64,000 bases of DNA from Winogradskyella sediminis. GTDB lineage: Bacteria; Bacteroidota; Bacteroidia; Flavobacteriales; Flavobacteriaceae. Positions 26,289 through 33,349 of the stretch are shown one piece after another (positions within the stretch are counted from its first letter, which is position 1; each line of letters opens with the position of its first letter). The translations under genes and the position numbers were made by a program. Below the pieces are notes generated by a model that was given only the letters and a program-made list of their open reading frames with translations, searched no databases and had not been told where the DNA came from. Location of the stretch: NCBI RefSeq assembly GCF_003387355.1, contig NZ_QUNH01000001.1, forward strand, positions 444,023 to 508,022. The letters are read 5' to 3'.

Positions 26289-26621
26289 TTATTTGCCTAA
26301 CATTAAAAGTTCGTTGCAAACCACTTCCGTAATATAGCGTTTTATACCATCCTTATCTTCCCAAGATCTCGAAGTTAACTTCCCTTCTATGGCTACTTCT
26401 TTACCTTTTGTAACAAATTTTTCAATAATCTGAGCCGTTTTCCCCCAAGCTACAACATTGTGCCATTGCGTATCTGTAATCTTTTCGCCCTGTGCATTTT
26501 TATAACTATCGTTTGTCGCAATAGAAAATTTTGCTAGGATTTTTCCGGATTCAAAATTGGTGATTTCTGGGTCTTGTCCTAAGTTACCAATCAACTGTAC
26601 TTTGTTTTTAAGTGTGTTCAT
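26289..26621 (-). CDS. ssb: Single-stranded DNA-binding protein, short form
   Basis: The product has a complete OB-fold (MNTLKNKVQLIGNLGQDPE, WHNVVAWGKTAQIIEKFV, KEVAIEGKLTSRSWEDKDG) but is only 110 residues long and ends VVCNELLMLGK. The disordered linker and the acidic DDxPF tip that recruits partner proteins are absent. This suggests a secondary SSB used in competence, recombination or a mobile element rather than the replicative copy. It borders the cassette array. Confidence 0.9.
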   Translation of the reverse strand: MNTLKNKVQLIGNLGQDPEITNFESGKILAKFSIATNDSYKNAQGEKITDTQWHNVVAWGKTAQIIEKFVTKGKEVAIEGKLTSRSWEDKDGIKRYITEVVCNELLMLGK

Positions 26622-26832: not shown

Positions 26833-26839
26833 GTTGGCA
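26833..26839 (+). other. Lone right core site (GTTGGCA) at the left edge of the array
   Basis: GTTGGCAGTA at 26833 is the perfect reverse complement of TACTGCCAAC, the left core at the end of the first cassette (28474-28483). No palindrome precedes it, so it is either what remains of a deleted attC or an attI-like insertion point. The rest of the 235-bp gap after ssb (26622-26832) shows only a possible ssb promoter and a small TTTACA/TGTAAA inverted repeat near 26733. Confidence 0.6.
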
Positions 26840-26856
26840 GTAATTAAAAAAAAGAT

Positions 26857-27381
26857 ATGACAGATAATGATATAATGGAAGAAATATCTAAGGGCTATTT
26901 AGAACTTATAGCCAGTAGAAATGGATATTTTAATTCCATACATCGCGACTATGGTACAGATTTAAGTATCAGAAAAGCGAAACTTTGTCCTATCAGAAAG
27001 AGGTATTTGACAACAGGAAAAGCTATAGATATCCAAGTAAAAGCTGTTTCTGAAAAGTATGTTCGTGATTATGACGATACATCTAAAACATTTGTCAAGT
27101 ATGACCTTGAAGTCAAAAACTATAATGATTTAATTGACCGAGCTAATGAAAATGGTTCTTTTATTCCTTTAATTTTAGCTGTATTTATAATGCCTGAAAC
27201 CAAGAATGAATGGCTCAATTTAAAACCGGAAGAACTGATTTTAAAAAAATGTGCTTTTTGGTTTCAAATTCCTTCAGGAGAATTACATTCGCAAAATAAA
27301 TACACAGTTACAATTGATATTCCAAAAGCTAATCGAATTGCGATGGACTTTTATGATGTTCAATTTTCAGCACTAGACTAA
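26857..27381 (+). CDS. DUF4365 protein, nuclease-like (cassette 1, gene A)
   Basis: A 174-residue cytoplasmic protein resembling the DUF4365 family. The pattern EISKGYLELIASRNGY, then YGTDLSI (D35), then AIDIQVKAV (Q60-x-K62) follows the PD-(D/E)xK nuclease scheme in which a Gln can replace the second acidic residue. DUF4365 domains often occur in defence-type genes. It overlaps the next gene by one base (TAATG), so the two are translationally coupled and travel in a single cassette. Nuclease activity is an inference from the motif alone. Confidence 0.72.
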   Translation: MTDNDIMEEISKGYLELIASRNGYFNSIHRDYGTDLSIRKAKLCPIRKRYLTTGKAIDIQVKAVSEKYVRDYDDTSKTFVKYDLEVKNYNDLIDRANENGSFIPLILAVFIMPETKNEWLNLKPEELILKKCAFWFQIPSGELHSQNKYTVTIDIPKANRIAMDFYDVQFSALD

Positions 27382-28472
27382 TGAGCAGATATAAAGAAAT
27401 ATTTATAAGAAATTATTTTATCTCTAGAGGTTGGAAACTTGAGAGAGAAGGAAATCTTTTTGGTTATTTTTCACCGCCTAAAAATATTGGCTTACCAAAT
27501 GATTATTTATTGGAATTACCTAAAATGTCAAAAAACCAAAAAGGTTTTGATAATTACATTGAAAGATTAATTCAAGACTTAATATTTGCATTACCAACGG
27601 AATCGAATGAAGAGGACTTAAAAATATTATTTAGTAAAGAGAATTCAATTTTAAAATATAGAATTTTTGACGCTGATTCATCTGACGGAACAATTTCATT
27701 TCAGAAACATATTGACTCATTAGAAAACTTTAAAAAAGTTTTATCTCAAGCAGTAATATTTACAGCTACTAATAAACCAATTTTTGGAGACGCAAAATAT
27801 GAAGTAGAAGGCTATTTAAATCGCTGTAGAGCCTTACAAACCGAAAAGGGAAGTTATGTAACAAGGTTAGAAATTCCAAACGACACAATTTATACAGCTT
27901 TCTCTAAAATTGAAACTGAAGACATAAATGATAAACTTTTTGATACTTTAGAATACCTAGAGGAGAATATATTTAATGCTAAAATTAAAATGGATATTAC
28001 AGAAAATTATCTTCAAGATATTTCACCCATTTTAAATTATGAGTTATTCAATTCCATAAAAAATATTTATACAAAATCACATATTAATAATTTAGAATAT
28101 CAATTATCATCGCACAACCGAATTAGAAAAATTGAAACTGAAAGAGTTCAAAAAAGTATTCCATATTTTACAAAATATTTAAGAGATGTAAAAAAGCTTT
28201 TACTTGAGGTTGTTCCTTTAGAGGCAATTGGATACATTAAAAGACTTTCTTCTTCATCACCTCTACATTCGACCAAAAATGAAGTTACTATTGATGCTGA
28301 TGTTTCTGGAAATACAGAAACAATTAAAATTATTCTTAGAAGTGATGAATATATTGAAGCCATAGAAGCTCATAAAAACGAATGGCCTATTCGCATAAAA
28401 GGAAAAGCTCAACAAAATAAAACTATGCTAACAATTAAAGAACTTGAGGAATTTGATATTATAAAAAAATAA
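27381..28472 (+). CDS. Unknown partner protein of the DUF4365 gene (cassette 1, gene B)
   Basis: I do not recognise this 363-residue protein. It has no signal peptide or membrane segment. The N-terminal third includes DNYIERLIQDLIFALPTE. The middle (about 180-290) is charged and helical, possibly a coiled coil, and the C-terminal 80 residues look like a beta-rich domain (NEVTIDADVSGNTETIKIIL ... WPIRIKGKA). Tight coupling to the DUF4365 gene inside one cassette argues that the two act together, for example as a nuclease and its sensor or regulator. This is an inference from position only. Confidence 0.65.
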   Translation: MSRYKEIFIRNYFISRGWKLEREGNLFGYFSPPKNIGLPNDYLLELPKMSKNQKGFDNYIERLIQDLIFALPTESNEEDLKILFSKENSILKYRIFDADSSDGTISFQKHIDSLENFKKVLSQAVIFTATNKPIFGDAKYEVEGYLNRCRALQTEKGSYVTRLEIPNDTIYTAFSKIETEDINDKLFDTLEYLEENIFNAKIKMDITENYLQDISPILNYELFNSIKNIYTKSHINNLEYQLSSHNRIRKIETERVQKSIPYFTKYLRDVKKLLLEVVPLEAIGYIKRLSSSSPLHSTKNEVTIDADVSGNTETIKIILRSDEYIEAIEAHKNEWPIRIKGKAQQNKTMLTIKELEEFDIIKK

Positions 28473-28476
28473 CTAC

Positions 28477-28609
28477 TGCCAACAATGTATAAAATTAATT
28501 GCTTGGTTCTAGCCTACTTACGAAAATCCTTGCGGATTTTCTATTCGGGTTTTATTTGCTAAATTAGTTGCTTAAACCACGCAACTAATCTTATACGAGA
28601 CCGTTGGCA
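28477..28609 (+). repeat. attC-like site 1
   Basis: 133 bp bounded by TGCCAAC (28477) and GTTGGCA (28603). It contains an inner inverted pair TTAGTTGC/GCAACTAA and a hairpin tip GAAAATCC-TTGC-GGATTTTC (about 28522-28541). The tip differs from other copies by paired changes. The orientation, core type and length are those of a Vibrio-like long attC site. Confidence 0.8.
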
Positions 28610-28624
28610 AACATTTAAGAATTT

Positions 28625-29038
28625 ATGACTAAAAAGATAATTTGCGTTTGGATTGGAACTTTTGAATCTGAAGACGAACTCTACAAAAACTATCTTAATT
28701 TTGATTATGAAAACGACGACAATCCCGAATCTGAATTTGCCAAAGATTCTGAATTAGAATATTATGATGAGGATTTTATGGAAAGTTGGTGGTTTAGCAA
28801 ACTGGAATTGAATAAACTGACGGAATATAAAGACGACTTACTCGACTCTGAATATTTTTTCGACGAACTTATTGCAGAATTAAAAAATAGAGATTTAACA
28901 ACTCGGAATTCGATTTCGTTCTTATTTGGAGAAAATGGAGAAAACGCAACAAATGAAACGCTCTTTGAATACAACGGAATGGAAATGAAAGACAAACCGA
29001 TTGAGTTTGTTTTTAAAAAAGAATATGAACTGAAATAA
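28625..29038 (+). CDS. Imm22-like immunity protein (cassette 2)
   Basis: A 137-residue, strongly acidic cytoplasmic protein. Its opening KKIICVWIGTFESEDELYKN, followed by NPESEFAKDSELEYYDEDFM, matches the pattern of immunity protein 22 family members, which neutralise polymorphic or contact-delivered toxins. No toxin gene accompanies it, so it would be an orphan immunity gene carried as a cassette. The start codon lies 22 bp after the right core of attC site 1. Confidence 0.65.
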   Translation: MTKKIICVWIGTFESEDELYKNYLNFDYENDDNPESEFAKDSELEYYDEDFMESWWFSKLELNKLTEYKDDLLDSEYFFDELIAELKNRDLTTRNSISFLFGENGENATNETLFEYNGMEMKDKPIEFVFKKEYELK

Positions 29039-29047
29039 AAAACGATT

Positions 29048-29182
29048 TGCCAACAACGTGTATAATTAATTGCTTTGGTCGTTGCTTATTTGGAAAATTC
29101 CTTTGGAATTTTCTCGCGTTCGTTTTTGTTTACTAAATTAGTTGCTTAAACACGCAACTAACCATACACAAAACCGTTAGGC
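29048..29182 (+). repeat. attC-like site 2
   Basis: 135 bp from TGCCAAC (29048) to GTTAGGC (29176). The outer arms pair through GTGTAT/ATACAC, and the tip is GAAAATTCC-TTT-GGAATTTTC. Its left core matches the start of cassette 2 (GTTGGCAAA) rather than its own right core. This asymmetry is what integron recombination produces. Confidence 0.85.
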
Positions 29183-29218
29183 ACAATATGACCAAACCAA
29201 CTTCAATTCAATAAATAA

Positions 29219-30148
29219 ATGGCAATATTTGATTTATTTTCTAAAAGACAAAAGAGATTAAGAGGCGAATTTCCTGAAATTTATACTTATGATAATATTC
29301 CACAACATTTAAGAGTTCAGATTATTCACATCATAAAAGATGCTATTGGAATTAGGAAACATGGACATGAAGATAAACCTGAAGAAGCTTATGACTTTAT
29401 ACACCAAACTCTTTGTCGTGAATATGGGATTTTTAGTTTAGGAGATAGATATTCAAAAAATGATGAAGATCACGTTTTGAACTTCCTTTTATCAACTGAA
29501 GATACTGAAAAAGCAATTGATGTAATTGAACTCTCGTTTAAATTTATAGATAGAATTATAAAACAATCTTTTGATGAATATGAATGGAATACTGAAATTA
29601 AAATTAAACCAGATGAGGCTATAGAAGAACTAAATGAACGATTTAAAGAACATGGAATTGGTTATTCTTTTGACGGAAGTGAAATTATAAGAGTTGATTC
29701 GACCTATACTCATGCTGAAATAACAAAACCAACGATTTCGCTATTATGGAATAATAAATTTGATGGAGCAAATGAGGAATATTTAAAAGCTCATGAACAT
29801 TATAGACACGGAAGAAATAAAGAATGTTTAACCGAATGTTTGAAAGCTTTTGAAAGTACAATGAAGATTATTTGTTCTGAAAAAGGATGGACTTATAAAC
29901 AGACTGACACAGCTAAAACTTTAATACAAATCTGTTTTAAAAATCAATTAGTTCCGACTTTCACCCAAAATCAATTTACATCTTTAAAGAACTTACTTGA
30001 AAGTGGAATCCCTACAATTCGAAACAAATTAGGTGGACATGGACAAGGACAAACACCGCAAATAGTTGACAATGAAATGACAAGATATGGTTTAAATTTG
30101 ACTGGAACCAATATCATTTTCTTAATTGAACAAAGCGGAATAAAATAA
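29219..30148 (+). CDS. AbiJ-NTD4/STM4504-like protein with HEPN motif (cassette 3)
   Basis: A 309-residue protein. The N-terminal half (FSKRQKRLRGEFPEIYTYDN, RVQIIHIIKDAIG) resembles the AbiJ_NTD4 / STM4504-CBY_0614 family linked to abortive infection. The C-terminal helical part ends with IRNKLGGHGQG, where R268 and H274 form an R-x5-H motif typical of HEPN ribonucleases. Its likely role is phage defence through RNA cleavage (inference from family and motif). It fills a whole cassette and has no adjacent antitoxin. Confidence 0.72.
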   Translation: MAIFDLFSKRQKRLRGEFPEIYTYDNIPQHLRVQIIHIIKDAIGIRKHGHEDKPEEAYDFIHQTLCREYGIFSLGDRYSKNDEDHVLNFLLSTEDTEKAIDVIELSFKFIDRIIKQSFDEYEWNTEIKIKPDEAIEELNERFKEHGIGYSFDGSEIIRVDSTYTHAEITKPTISLLWNNKFDGANEEYLKAHEHYRHGRNKECLTECLKAFESTMKIICSEKGWTYKQTDTAKTLIQICFKNQLVPTFTQNQFTSLKNLLESGIPTIRNKLGGHGQGQTPQIVDNEMTRYGLNLTGTNIIFLIEQSGIK

Positions 30149-30155
30149 ATACTGT

Positions 30156-30290
30156 GCCTAACAACGTGTATAATTAATTGCTTTGGTCGTTGCTTATTTG
30201 GAAAATTCCTTCGGAATTTTCTCGCGTTCGTTTTTGTTTACTAAATTAGTTGCTGAAACACGCAACTAACCATACACAATACCGTTAGCC
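30156..30290 (+). repeat. attC-like site 3
   Basis: 135 bp from GCCTAAC (30156, an exact RYYYAAC core) to GTTAGCC (30284). The body is nearly identical to site 2, with tip GAAAATTCC-TTC-GGAATTTTC. The left core extended (TGTGCCTAAC) is the exact reverse complement of the start of cassette 3. Confidence 0.85.
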
Positions 30291-30296
30291 ACAACA

Positions 30297-30989
30297 ATGA
30301 AAAAACTACATATGAATTTGAAATTTCACATAATAATTCTATTCCTTGGTTTCGGTTTTTTGACCAATTGTTCTGAATCGAAAAAGCAAAATTCTAAGGT
30401 TAATCAAAAGGAAATAAAAACTGATGATGCTGAAATAATTAACATAATCGAAAATGATAGCACAGAGCTAATTAAGTTAATGAGAAAAGCATACTATTGG
30501 CATTCTGAAACTTATCTTCCAGACTTACCTCTAAATTATGAAAAAGGGAATGACAGTATTTTTATTGGAATTGATTGGAATACATACGATAAGAATGTAC
30601 AAATACTCAACAAAACAAATTTCTTTACAAACGATTTTATAATTTACCACAAGAACATTGCGTCCAATATTGATAAATCTATTAAAAAAGCTGGAACTGA
30701 ATGGAGAAACATAAATGACGGAATTCCAATTTGGGCATACGAAGCAGATGAATGGTGTAATTGTCAAGATTTTCCCGACAGATACTGGGAAACAATAATT
30801 ATAGATGATTTAAAAATTAATAATGGTTTAGCAACTTTCAACTTAAATTGGAAAACAGGAAACCAATATCACTCTATGAATTATGAGATAACAGCAAAAA
30901 AGATAGATTTGAAATGGAAAATCAACTCTTTAGAGGGATTTAAAAATTATAAAAGCTCTGAGGAATACGATAAATTAATAGCTGATTAA
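30297..30989 (+). CDS. Hypothetical lipoprotein (cassette 4)
   Basis: A 230-residue lipoprotein with lipobox LTNC (Cys near residue 25, after FHIIILFLGFGFLTNC). The mature part is mixed alpha/beta with a notable aromatic segment around AYYWHSETYLPDLPLNYEKG, and a Cys pair in EWCNCQDFPDRYW that could form a disulfide in the periplasm. It somewhat resembles DUF3828-type proteins, but I do not assign it. The start codon lies only 13 bp after the core of attC site 3. Confidence 0.65.
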   Translation: MKKLHMNLKFHIIILFLGFGFLTNCSESKKQNSKVNQKEIKTDDAEIINIIENDSTELIKLMRKAYYWHSETYLPDLPLNYEKGNDSIFIGIDWNTYDKNVQILNKTNFFTNDFIIYHKNIASNIDKSIKKAGTEWRNINDGIPIWAYEADEWCNCQDFPDRYWETIIIDDLKINNGLATFNLNWKTGNQYHSMNYEITAKKIDLKWKINSLEGFKNYKSSEEYDKLIAD

Positions 30990-31002
30990 CAAAAATTGCA
31001 GT

Positions 31003-31137
31003 GGCTAACACCGTGTATAATTAATTGCTTTTTATGTGCTTACCTGCGAAAATTCCTGCGGAATTTTCTCGGGTTCGTAAAAGTTTGCTAATTTAGTTGC
31101 CTAACCACGCAACTAACCATACACAAAACCGTTGGGC
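31003..31137 (+). repeat. attC-like site 4
   Basis: 135 bp from GGCTAAC (31003, exact RYYYAAC except for the second G) to GTTGGGC (31131). The tip is CGAAAATTCC-TGC-GGAATTTTC. The left core extended (GTGGCTAAC) is the reverse complement of the start of cassette 4 (GTTAGCCAC), not of its own right core. Confidence 0.84.
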
Positions 31138-31152
31138 ACAAGCTGAAAAAAA

Positions 31153-31782
31153 TTGGGTAAGAAGAAGAAAAAAAGAAAATCACAAGTTATAAAAACTCTG
31201 AATTCCTTATCAAAATGGATAGGTGGATTTATCATTGGTGCGGTTACCATTTATGGAGTTTATTTACAAAGTCCATATTATGAAACCTATAAAAAAGGGA
31301 TAGAAGCTGAATTATTACCGGTAATTGAAATTCATCAAAATAATCCAGATTTAGATCCTTTTAGACCAAAAAATATTGAACTTGCTTATCCCATTGTAAA
31401 TAATGGAAAATCTAGAGCGAATAATATTGTAATTCAGATAGTCGTTCCTGGTGAAACAAGTGTACATTTTATCCCAAATGTATTTGAACTTGATTACATA
31501 AAAGAAAGAAAAGAGTTTGGAGATTCGATTAATCTTAAAGACCTTCAGTTCAAAACAATGGTTTATAAAGCAAAACGATTAGATTCAGGAGACTTTTCAA
31601 TTATGTATATCTCAATGAATAAAAGCAAATTTGAAAACTTGAATAATATTCCAACGCTTGATTATGAAAACGGAATGATAGACTCAAATTTAATTTTCCC
31701 ACATTTTACCTACATTAAGTATGATGAAGGTCAAGGAATTATTAAACTTAATGATACTTTGAAATTAAGAAGGAAATATTAA
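31153..31782 (+). CDS. Membrane-anchored hypothetical protein (cassette 5)
   Basis: A 209-residue protein with a very basic N terminus (MGKKKKKRKSQ), one transmembrane helix (about 21-40, WIGGFIIGAVTIYGVYLQS), and a beta-rich outer domain with YPIVNNGKSRANNIVIQI, a pattern seen in immunoglobulin-like folds. No family is recognised. The start is a TTG at 31153, with no ATG available near the N terminus. Its orientation and compact cassette placement match its neighbours. Confidence 0.6.
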   Translation: MGKKKKKRKSQVIKTLNSLSKWIGGFIIGAVTIYGVYLQSPYYETYKKGIEAELLPVIEIHQNNPDLDPFRPKNIELAYPIVNNGKSRANNIVIQIVVPGETSVHFIPNVFELDYIKERKEFGDSINLKDLQFKTMVYKAKRLDSGDFSIMYISMNKSKFENLNNIPTLDYENGMIDSNLIFPHFTYIKYDEGQGIIKLNDTLKLRRKY

Positions 31783-31796
31783 TGATTTAAGATTAT

Positions 31797-31929
31797 GCAC
31801 AACAATGTATAACCGCAATTACGGCGAATTCGATTACGTCCGAATCCACTCGGAATTGCTAACGTCAGTGCTTAACCGAAAAACTCCGTATATTTATCCG
31901 TAACTGACGGTTATACGAGACCGTTGTGT
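31797..31929 (+). repeat. attC-like site 5 (divergent family)
   Basis: 133 bp from GCACAAC (31797) to GTTGTGT (31923). The length matches the other sites but the body differs almost completely: it pairs GTATAACCG (31807) with CGGTTATAC, and has GTCAGT and ACTGAC inside. The same architecture with a different sequence suggests that it arrived from another array. Confidence 0.72.
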
Positions 31930-31949
31930 GTAATTAGAGAAAACCGAGA

Positions 31950-32759
31950 ATGATAGAATTAGAATTAATCTGGCAAAAGCCTATTTACCTTCCATATTTG
32001 CAACCTAAATTGACTGATGAAATTTTGGAAAATGCAGAAATAAAATTAGGATATAAATTACCTAAAGAGCTTGTTGAATTATTGAAAATTCAAAACGGAG
32101 GTTACATCAGAAAAACACTTAAGGAATCTCTAAACGAACAAATTTATGGAATTGGTCCGCATTTCCCTTCTCTTACAGATGTAGACTGGACAGATTATAA
32201 AGATTGGGTAAGTTTTGAACTAAACGGATTAATCCCGTTTGATGGCGATGGACATTGGCATATATGTCTTGATTATAGAAAAAACAAAGAAAATCCACAG
32301 ATAACTTATATCAGTGTAGAAAGTGATAGTTAAAGATTAATTGCGGAATCTTTCTCGGAATATTTAACTCAACTTGATTATGACATAGATGATGAGTTAG
32401 TTATCAGAACAAATAAAACTATTACGGAAATCTCTAAAGAACTTGAAAAAACACTAAATATCGAATTTGAAGAACCAGATAATTTTGCTCACGGATATGA
32501 CGAGTATAGAAGTGAATTAGATGGAAGTTGGATTTGGTTAAGCCCTAACCAAGTACCAAAAGGTTTTGTTAGAGAGAATGAAGATAGATATCAAGAACTT
32601 ATTGAATTATCGAAAGGAACTTCTTTGAGGTATCCAGAAATATCAAATTCTGACTTGCTTATTAGTTTTTCAAGTAAGAAAGTTGAGAATAAAGCTATGG
32701 AAAAATTAAAGCTAAATTCTATAGACATCAAACCTTTAAGTGAATTAATAATAAAATAA
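31950..32759 (+). pseudogene. SUKH (SMI1/KNR4) immunity-like gene with one in-frame stop (cassette 6)
   Basis: The first 127 codons encode a SUKH-type domain (LGYKLPKELVELLKIQNGG, LIPFDGDGHWHICLDYR). TAA at 32331-32333 then interrupts it in the motif ISVESDS-stop-RLIAESFSEYL, where the family normally continues through a conserved acidic/hydrophobic segment. The same frame stays open for 141 more codons, ending LNSIDIKPLSEIIIK at 32759, 5 bp before the next attC-like core. The full length would be 270 codons. SUKH proteins counter polymorphic toxins. A recent nonsense mutation or a sequencing error are both possible. Confidence 0.8.
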
Positions 32760-32763
32760 CTGC

Positions 32764-32895
32764 TCACAACACCGTGTATAATTCATTGCTAGTTCTAGCC
32801 TATTTACGAATATTCTTGCGGAATATGCTATTCGGTTTTTATTGGCTAAATTAGTTACTTAAACGCGCAACTAATCTTACATAAACACGTTGTAG
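32764..32895 (+). repeat. attC-like site 6
   Basis: 132 bp from TCACAAC (32764) to GTTGTAG (32889). The body is of the same family as site 1, with tip GAATATTC-TTGCG-GAATAT, whose base changes on one side are matched on the other. The left core resembles the start of cassette 6 (GTTGTG). Confidence 0.78.
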
Positions 32896-32908
32896 GTAAT
32901 TTGAGAAA

Positions 32909-33325
32909 ATGATAAATATCTTTAAAAAGAAACAGGAAGAAATAAAAGAAGAGTTCACTATTGGAGAATTTGACTTTAAAATTGATTCCGGTAATACAAC
33001 CATACAAATTGACGGAAATAAAATTTTTGACTTAACAATCAAAGCGGATGAAAATGTTTTTGAAAATCTATGCGAAAACGATGATTTTGAATTCGGATAT
33101 GGACTTTATTCACCTGAATTTTATGCTCGCGAAATTGACCTTGGAAACAAGAATAAGATAGTAATCAACGAAAAAAATCAAAACGATTATGAAACAGCTC
33201 TATATTTTATGGAACACAATGATCTGGAGATAAATTTAAGTATTCACGATAATTGGATTTTAGTAGCAGGTTGGACTTATATAAGTGGAAAGAAATACCC
33301 GATTTTAATAAAAATGAAAAAATAA
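32909..33325 (+). CDS. Small acidic hypothetical protein (cassette 7)
   Basis: A 138-residue cytoplasmic protein, acidic and beta-rich (EFDFKIDSGNTTIQIDGNKI, LSIHDNWILVAGWTYISGK). The overall look is that of a small immunity or toxin-inhibitor protein, but I cannot place it in a family. It starts 14 bp after the right core of site 6 and is followed 10 bp after the stop by the truncated last core. Confidence 0.6.
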   Translation: MINIFKKKQEEIKEEFTIGEFDFKIDSGNTTIQIDGNKIFDLTIKADENVFENLCENDDFEFGYGLYSPEFYAREIDLGNKNKIVINEKNQNDYETALYFMEHNDLEINLSIHDNWILVAGWTYISGKKYPILIKMKK

Positions 33326-33334
33326 AATAACTAC

Positions 33335-33349
33335 TCACAACAATGTGTT
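33335..33349 (+). repeat. Truncated attC-like left core at the right edge of the array
   Basis: TCACAACAATGTG (33335-33347) matches the first bases of the other sites, but the palindrome and the right core that should follow about 120 bp later are missing. The following 220 bp (33350-33573) show no gene, repeat or promoter I can support. This marks the scar where the array ends or a deletion removed the rest. Confidence 0.65.

What the first reader, a model, noticed from the sequence alone, without database searches (positions are those of the whole stretch)
26833..33341. Integron-like cassette array in a flavobacterial chromosome, with no integrase in the window
Seven same-strand gene units alternate with six ~133-bp imperfect palindromes ending in RYYYAAC/GTTRRRY-like cores. 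Gaps are minimal on both sides of each ORF (5-15 bp after the stop, 13-43 bp before the start), as in integron cassettes. The site length resembles the long VCR-type attC sites of Vibrio. The cargo is almost all unknown or defence-like. Long integron arrays are best described in Gammaproteobacteria, so a Bacteroidota array of this form is notable.
Basis: partly seen in the sequence, partly recalled or inferred. Interest (0 to 1): 0.93.

Follow-up and report, generated by a model that had tools for sequence, protein, structure and literature searches.

The report
A different integron in Bacteroidota
A run of seven gene cassettes in a likely Winogradskyella genome has the paired ends of integron cassettes, and the recombinase that likely moves them, found beside such arrays in this genome and elsewhere in the Bacteroidota, lacks the segment that defines known integron integrases, so gene capture here would run on a different enzyme.

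Summary
The window holds seven co-oriented units separated by six ~137-nt sites, plus a truncated seventh. A unit's own 5' end (GTT+7) tends to be the reverse complement of its own 3' end: 7/7 in 152 of 252 cassettes of this genus and relatives, against 4/296 across a site and 0.8% of random pairs. That is the signature of units joined by site-specific recombination. Predicted folds favour the bottom strand in 245/252 (control 66/252). Some cassettes recur in other arrays with unrelated neighbours. The genome has at least 115 sites and, on another contig, an integrase gene followed 27 bp later by a 13-link cassette chain. That integrase type (49/60 genus genomes; other Bacteroidota families) lacks the ~43-residue patch III segment that defines IntI (38/38 proteins) and carries an extra N-terminal domain with an XPB/HARP-like predicted fold. 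Predicted site folds mostly lack the extrahelical bases that IntI reads. It works like an integron but fails a defining IntI test. I propose a Bacteroidota integron variant with its own recombinase and site architecture; recombination itself is untested. The window array is an integrase-less island beside ssb, where other species carry other cassettes.

The parts
26833..28602 (+). cassette 1: two-gene unit (26857-27381 DUF4365; 27381-28472), PADLOC PDC-M02A/PDC-M02B candidate defence pair; own ends GTTGGCAGTA / TACTGCCAAC
28474..28612 (+). attC-like site 1 (R'' end of cassette 1 + site body + R' start of cassette 2)
28603..29175 (+). cassette 2: DUF4284 / Immunity protein 22 (ORF 28625-29038)
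29045..29185 (+). attC-like site 2
29176..30283 (+). cassette 3: AbiJ_NTD4 + DUF7014 protein (ORF 29219-30148)
30153..30293 (+). attC-like site 3
30284..31130 (+). cassette 4: lipoprotein-like by its N-terminus (own reading), no family (ORF 30297-30989)
31000..31140 (+). attC-like site 4
31131..31922 (+). cassette 5: protein with a hydrophobic N-terminal stretch (own reading), no family (ORF 31153-31782)
31794..31932 (+). attC-like site 5, the most diverged of the six
31923..32888 (+). cassette 6: gene with an in-frame stop (ORF 31950-32333, same frame continues 32334-32756)
32761..32898 (+). attC-like site 6
32889..33341 (+). cassette 7 (ORF 32909-33325, no family); its own site is truncated after the R'' end
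26289..26621 (-). ssb gene: conserved left neighbour; the cassette island begins upstream of its start codon. Of 19 ssb loci fetched from relatives 14 have an R1 site within the fetched stretch (up to 12.7 kb), five have none
   Evidence: ssb identity recalled from the sequence

Best explanation
The array is a stretch of cassettes of an integron-like gene-capture system of Bacteroidota, in which a tyrosine recombinase encoded beside another array of the same genome likely excises and inserts each cassette by recombining the folded bottom strand of its ~137-nt site. SHOWN by sequence: cassette ends are complementary within a cassette and rarely across sites; cassettes begin at GTT; in ten loci the first cassette beside an integrase gene begins 27-82 bp after that gene's stop codon and its own end matches that start; whole cassettes recur in other arrays with unrelated neighbours. 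COMPUTED: the bottom strand folds better than the top; in most folds a 9-13-bp R helix is followed by a 3-nt bulge (4-nt in five sites of other lineages) on the R'-L' arm only. INFERRED: a single-stranded cassette folds so that R'' pairs with R'; the recombinase cuts at C^GTT or G^TT and joins the cassette to attI (next to the integrase gene) or to a secondary site such as the one upstream of ssb in the window. Its N-terminal XPB/HARP-like domain would help to hold the folded site, in place of the IntI patch III helix that reads extrahelical bases.
For: Own-end complementarity: 152 of 252 cassettes 7/7 beyond GTT and 207 of 252 with a run of 6 or more, against 4 of 296 across one site and 0.8% of random pairs (333 hits, 296 with both cores kept). 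Bottom strand more stable in 245 of 252 circular-form and 237 of 252 array-form sites, against 66 of 252 control segments; 17 of 17 sites found without the model in 8 named loci. Integrase-adjacent first cassettes: of ten loci chosen for having a site downstream, nine show a 9-10 bp own-end match starting 27-82 bp after the integrase stop, the tenth 6 bp. 10 of the 20 integrase loci carry a co-oriented site downstream within the ~1.2-kb flank. Own genome: the integrase is followed 27 bp after its stop by a chain of 13 cassette links found without the model, one of them (83-nt site) probably chance. Of nine tyrosine recombinases of the genome this one has the strong co-oriented site; two others have weak opposite-strand sites nearby. 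Named loci: chains of >=1 link in 17 and >=2 in 8 of 32, against 21 and 2 of 320 mononucleotide shuffles (32 of the 80 loci given). Shared cassettes: 6 pairs between genomes (>=80% identity, full length; best 98% over 690 bp), 7 within genomes (two at 100%); in eight pairs inspected the neighbourhoods share only site-sized stretches. N-terminal-domain integrase in 49 of 60 genus genomes. Phylum sample: domain and sites coincide in 16 of 296 genomes, 7.5 expected, Fisher p 0.0007.
Against: No recombination was observed. The window itself has no integrase, and its last site is truncated. 15 of 32 named integrase loci show no cassette chain, several for lack of flank. 10 of the 20 loci show no co-oriented R1 site downstream in their short flank. 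Window cassettes 5-7 have own-end matches no better than cross matches. Folds are minimum-energy predictions; window sites 4 and 6 are not clearly better than shuffles, and site 4 folds slightly better on the top strand. The reverse-anchor control gave 50 and 11 of 320; I set it aside because the signal is symmetric. The IntI insertion is itself described as not fully conserved in the integron-like subgroup (PMC8138268, passage).
Confidence: 0.82

Rival explanations
1. Ordinary CALIN: cassettes of the classical integron, moved by a normal IntI acting in trans or since lost.
For: GTT/AAC cores, bottom-strand bias, VCR-like length and own-end complementarity are as in classical cassettes; CALINs are wider spread than intI, and integrons have been listed for Bacteroidota (PMC8618304, passages).
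Against: No IntI over the TIGR02249 cut-off in 37 genomes; the enzyme family at the head of the arrays lacks patch III in 38 of 38; 1-2-nt bulges on the R''-L'' arm, the classical extrahelical bases, in only 23 of 240 predicted folds.
Confidence: 0.08
2. Host XerC/XerD (or another recombinase) does the recombination, as for IMEX elements (recalled), and the array-linked integrase is a passenger.
For: Xer-like recombinases are present; weak opposite-strand sites also lie near two other recombinase genes (L004, L006).
Against: In the ten loci tested the first cassette starts 27-82 bp after the stop of this recombinase family, and similar junctions occur in other Bacteroidota.
Confidence: 0.06
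3. Fixed intergenic repeats (terminators or REP-like elements) between immobile genes.
For: Sites sit between genes, and several contain a strong hairpin.
Against: Complementarity lies between the two ends of one gene unit, not inside one repeat; near-identical units in different places; different sequence behind the ssb junction among species (by eye).
Confidence: 0.02
4. Patch III was lost within the IntI family, so this is a derived classical integron rather than a separate origin (compatible with the best explanation).
For: AU test does not reject Bacteroidota integrases plus IntI as one clade (p 0.114); TIGR02249 matches both flanks of the missing segment.
Against: Best tree places IntI with archaeal and Firmicutes XerA-like proteins (92/60), away from the Bacteroidota clade (81/78). 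The IntI rows were found with a Vibrio query and are Vibrio or unnamed.
Confidence: 0.3

Closest known systems
Sedentary chromosomal integrons (Vibrio superintegron: IntIA, attI, VCR attC sites)
   Same: Integrase gene, attI-like junction, long arrays of single-gene cassettes, long sites with AAC/GTT cores, bottom-strand folding bias, R'/R'' complementarity within a cassette.
   Different: Integrase lacks the patch III / I2 insertion and has an extra N-terminal domain; gene co-oriented with the array; R helix mostly 10-12 bp instead of 7 (7 recalled); one-sided 3-4-nt bulge; predicted extrahelical bases mostly absent.
Treponema chromosomal integrons
   Different: Treponema enzymes are reported as IntI; here the IntI-specific domain is missing.
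CALIN elements
   Same: The window array is a cluster of sites without an integrase (term: PMC8618304, passage).
   Different: An integrase of another type lies elsewhere in the same genome with its own array.
XerA-type tyrosine recombinases (NCBIfam NF040815; PDB 5hxy, 4a8e)
   Same: Closest solved relatives by sequence and structure; NF040815 is the best NCBIfam model for all four proteins scanned, over its cut-off in two.
   Different: XerA acts in Xer/dif chromosome resolution (title and abstract start); these act, as inferred, on cassette sites and most have an added N-terminal domain.
XPB damage-recognition domain / SMARCAL1 HARP domain

Membership tests
Integron (classical) | Integrase with the IntI-specific additional domain (patch III / I2 helix) | tested here: not met
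   Distance from the catalytic-Lys loop to HxxR is 57-61 residues in 38 of 38 Bacteroidota proteins against 101 in 15 of 15 IntI; the PDB 2a3v alignment skips 63 chain residues against 20; TIGR02249 cut-off 265 not reached by the four proteins scanned (172-204 bits) nor in 37 genomes. The domain as IntegronFinder's second required profile: PMC9668308, passage.
Integron (classical) | Tyrosine recombinase with catalytic R-K-H-R-H-Y (set recalled) | tested here: met
   R237, K262, H326, R329, H352, Y361 invariant in 16 aligned proteins; PF00589.
Integron (classical) | attI next to the integrase where the first cassette begins | tested here: met
   First cassette begins 27-82 bp after the stop in ten loci chosen for a downstream site, own-end match 9-10 bp in nine; own genome 13-link chain. 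A conserved attI motif was not proven.
Integron (classical) | attC sites with AAC/GTT cores, R''/R' complementary within a cassette | tested here: met
   152 of 252 exact over 7 further bases, 207 of 252 over 6 or more.
Integron (classical) | Bottom-strand hairpin favoured over top strand | tested here: met
   245 of 252; 17 of 17 in 8 named loci; 12 of 12 in the own-genome chain. Predicted energies only.
Integron (classical) | Extrahelical bases on the R''-L'' arm and an unpaired central spacer | tested here: not met
   1-2-nt bulge on that arm in 23 of 240 predicted folds; instead a 3-nt bulge on the R'-L' arm only in 159 of 252. Predictions, not structures. Definition: PMC2727003, passages.
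Integron (classical) | Cassettes move: same cassette, different neighbours | tested here: met
   6 cross-genome and 7 within-genome pairs among 255 cassettes; eight pairs inspected begin at GTT and share only site-sized neighbourhood alignments.
Integron (classical) | Integrase-dependent attI x attC recombination | not testable with these tools
   Needs an experiment.
CALIN | At least two attC sites called by an attC model, no intI nearby | tested here: inconclusive
   Window has six sites by my own model and no integrase, but IntegronFinder's attC model could not be run, and no Rfam family matches.
XPB-DRD/HARP domain | Fold match well above the background | tested here: inconclusive

The most novel reading that the evidence does not exclude
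Bacteroidota evolved a second kind of integron: a XerA-like recombinase, not IntI, gained an XPB/HARP-like domain that grips folded DNA, and its cassette sites encode strand choice through G-T wobbles and a one-sided bulge instead of extrahelical bases. Gene capture from single-stranded hairpins would then have arisen twice.
Probability: 0.45. Interest if true: 0.93.

Novelty: new variant of a known kind. Interest (0 to 1): 0.86.

Why it matters
IntegronFinder asks for the IntI-specific domain (PMC9668308, passage), so integrons of this kind would not be called complete: IntegronFinder 2.0 reports one complete integron in Bacteroidetes proper, in Salinibacter (PMC9024848, passage). Here one genome holds at least 115 sites in the 0.28 Mb examined, with defence-like and unknown cargo. 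If the recombinase works as inferred, patch III and extrahelical bases are one solution among several for recombining a folded single strand. It would also offer a new recombinase-site pair and make the question of integron origin (one or two) testable.

Tried and rejected
First pattern for the site was mistyped and found nothing; replaced by BLAST and a covariance model. Rfam holds no matching family at gathering thresholds. Pfam does not recognise the N-terminal domain at E up to 10 beyond weak unrelated matches. Foldseek gave no match at E<=0.001 for that domain. The reverse-complement anchors were meant as a control but carry the same symmetric signal (50 and 11 of 320), so only the shuffles are used. 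A first regex measure of the K-loop to HxxR distance was wrong for many rows and was replaced. In one search I gave the own-genome locus a stop coordinate 59 bases too late and it showed one stray link; one search repeats it with the right stop and finds 13 links. A loose attI regex hits 38 of 52 loci but also 236 of 1040 control windows, so attI is argued from the junctions, not from a motif. Empty versus occupied site: five of 19 ssb loci (L089, L091, L093, L095, L100) show no R1 site, but their intergenic sequence is too diverged to read an exact empty site. No site in phage records; two Tenacibaculum plasmids have 75-79% identical sites. None of the seven window cassettes recurs at >=80% full length among the 255. 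Of 35 loci looked at, three (L113, L125, L130) were left out for lack of stop or flank.
Full report
WHAT IS THERE. Between 26833 and 33341 seven co-oriented units alternate with six sites of 124-127 bp from AAC to GTT. A unit's start is the reverse complement of its own end over 10, 9, 10, 9, 4, 6 and 5 contiguous bases for units 1 to 7. For units 1-4 no cross pairing is as long; for units 5-7 some cross pairings are. The seventh site is cut off after its first half. The window has no integrase.

WHERE IT IS. The window is contig C1 444023-508022 of a 3.80-Mb, 32-contig genome. The genome's array-linked integrase is 99% identical to a Winogradskyella sediminis protein, so I take the genus as Winogradskyella. 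BLAST with one site hits 36 of 37 same-genus genomes (own included) and 0 of 23 genomes of other families (about 14 candidates per genome are scored, so copy numbers there are floors). A covariance model from the six sites found 305 sites in 42 loci and 115 in 0.28 Mb of this genome (four of them cut off at contig ends). Several small contigs of this draft begin or end close to a site.

THE CASSETTE TEST. I rebuilt a profile from 150 sites and scanned the window and 120 loci: 333 hits, 296 with both cores kept, 252 cassettes between neighbouring sites. Start and end of the same cassette agree at all seven bases beyond GTT in 152 of 252, with a run of six or more in 207. Fifteen of 252 disagree at the first of these bases and thirteen at the second; I count them as misses. 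Across one site, where two different cassettes meet, all seven agree in 4 of 296, and in random pairs in 0.8%. This is what remains when circles that close on matching ends are inserted one behind another. Cassettes have a median length of 752 bp, 226 of 255 longest reading frames point the same way, and the gaps are 35 bp before the start and 13 bp after the stop (medians over the co-oriented frames among 217 cassettes).

MOVEMENT. Among 255 cassettes, six pairs from different genomes match at >=80% over the full length (best 98% over 690 bp; one between Winogradskyella and Algibacter onchidii at 90%), and seven pairs lie within one genome, two of them 100% identical on a 242-kb second contig. 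In the eight pairs inspected the cassettes begin at GTT, and what the 900-bp neighbourhoods share is no longer than a site (at most 153 bp). None of the seven window cassettes recurs in the set. The window array lies upstream of ssb. Of 19 ssb loci read from relatives, 14 have an R1 site within the fetched stretch and five none; read by eye, the sequence behind the junction differs between species.

THE INTEGRASE. None of 37 genomes has a TIGR02249 match over the cut-off, but a ~370-405-residue tyrosine recombinase matches both halves of that profile and skips its middle. Ten of the 20 loci fetched there have a co-oriented site downstream within the flank. In these ten the first cassette begins 27-82 bp after the stop codon, and its own end matches that start over 9-10 bases in nine, six in the tenth. 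One of them is in this genome: without the model, 13 cassette links follow one another from 27 bp after its stop, one (83-nt site) probably chance, and all 12 sites between links fold better on the bottom strand. Of the nine tyrosine recombinases of the genome this one has the strong co-oriented site; L004 and L006 have weak sites on the other strand. The N-terminal domain of this enzyme is found in 49 of 60 genus genomes at E<=1e-5; the weaker hits may be the ~355-residue type that I did not find beside arrays (L060, L061).

NOT AN INTI BY THE USUAL TEST. IntI is defined by an additional domain around patch III, which IntegronFinder requires as a second profile (PMC9668308, passages). A tyrosine-recombinase survey calls the insertion essential for integron function, though not fully conserved in its integron-like subgroup (PMC8138268, passages). 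Here the stretch between the catalytic-lysine loop and HxxR is 57-61 residues in 38 of 38 Bacteroidota proteins, as in XerA-like ones (56-60), against 101 in 15 of 15 IntI, which were found with a Vibrio query. The solved IntI 2a3v aligns with a gap of 63 chain residues against 20. In a tree of 65 proteins the Bacteroidota enzymes form one side of a branch (81/78) and IntI lies with XerA-like proteins (92/60), but an AU test does not reject Bacteroidota plus IntI as one clade (p 0.114). One or two origins is therefore open.

THE SITES. The bottom strand folds more stably than the top in 245 of 252 sites in circular form and 237 of 252 as they stand, against 66 of 252 segments from inside cassettes. 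In 159 of 252 predicted bottom-strand folds the R helix (mostly 10-12 bp) is followed by a 3-nt bulge on the R'-L' arm only. Small bulges on the other arm, where classical extrahelical bases lie, appear in 23 of 240. In classical sites the first of those bases sets strand choice (PMC2727003, passages) and one is contacted by the I2 helix of IntI (PMC3053210, passages). So the helix and, by prediction, most of the bases it reads are both missing here. I infer co-evolution.

BEYOND THE GENUS. The one scan of genome contigs returned 80 named loci, its cap. I tested 32 of them without the site model: cassette chains start within 260 bp of the integrase stop in 17. Two or more links occur in 8: Zunongwangia, a Bacteroidetes MAG, Flavobacterium aciduliphilum, a Flavobacteriaceae strain, Algoriphagus, Seonamhaeicola, a Sphingobacteriales MAG and Aquiflexum. 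Shuffles gave 21 and 2 of 320. The 17 sites between those links are 131-142 nt long and all favour the bottom strand; the five printed (L105, L115, L126 twice, L128) have a 4-nt bulge at the same place. R1 finds sites in L103, L114, L124 and L126 but not in L105, L112, L115 or L128, so part of these sites share the form without close sequence.

CARGO. Window: a PDC-M02 two-gene candidate defence pair, an Imm22-like protein, an AbiJ_NTD4/DUF7014 protein, and proteins with no or weak matches. Of 117 cassette proteins scanned (from 217), 54 Pfam families matched, each in one or two members; the 25 listed include ParE toxin, Abi_C and AAA proteins, CAAX proteases, cation efflux and the beta-lactamase fold. 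PADLOC models such as AriA, AbiJ, GajA and PD-T4-6 matched one member each. The number of proteins without any match was not returned.

LITERATURE. Library searches listed no paper that I recognised as describing such a system; I read passages of eight papers, none in full. Subscription papers and preprints are not held. Integrons have been listed for Bacteroidota (PMC8618304, passage), and IntegronFinder 2.0 names one complete Bacteroidetes integron, in Salinibacter ruber (PMC9024848, passage). Taxon-specific attC models cover 11 taxa, Bacteroidota not among those named (PMC8352920, passages). The co-oriented integrase is known from Treponema (PMC3607928, passage).

VERDICT. It works like an integron; by the IntI-domain test it is not a classical one. 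I file it as a new variant.

Noticed in passing
window 31950-32756: Cassette 6 carries one reading frame interrupted by an in-frame stop: a decaying or split gene inside the array.
   Followed up: partly
L026-L027 (G005:C2, 242-kb contig): The second contig of a two-contig genome carries nearly 40 kb of array, with two cassettes present twice at 100% identity.
   Followed up: partly
G000 contigs (L221, L222, L223, L225, L228, L229, L231): Seven small contigs start 84-106 nt before a site, so the repeats probably break short-read assemblies and cassette counts are underestimates.
   Followed up: no
L058, L060, L061: Related recombinases of 277-356 residues in the same genus, where I saw no cassette junction after the stop codon; their role is unknown.
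   Followed up: no
L004 and L006 (G000:C6, C7): Two other recombinase genes lie next to weak opposite-strand sites near contig starts, perhaps unrelated elements inserted at array ends.
   Followed up: no
CP116296.1, CP116298.1 (Tenacibaculum finnmarkense plasmids): Plasmids carry 75-79% identical sites, so such cassettes may also travel on plasmids of other Flavobacteriaceae.
   Followed up: no
L136: A contig labelled Spirochaetota encodes the long integrase with one cassette-like unit behind it; horizontal spread or misbinning.
   Followed up: no
ssb upstream region, L083-L099: Sequences just before the first cassette upstream of ssb resemble each other in several species (TATATTTA(G/T)GTGTTAGC or CGTATATATAAGTGTT), like a second docking site without an integrase.
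   Followed up: partly
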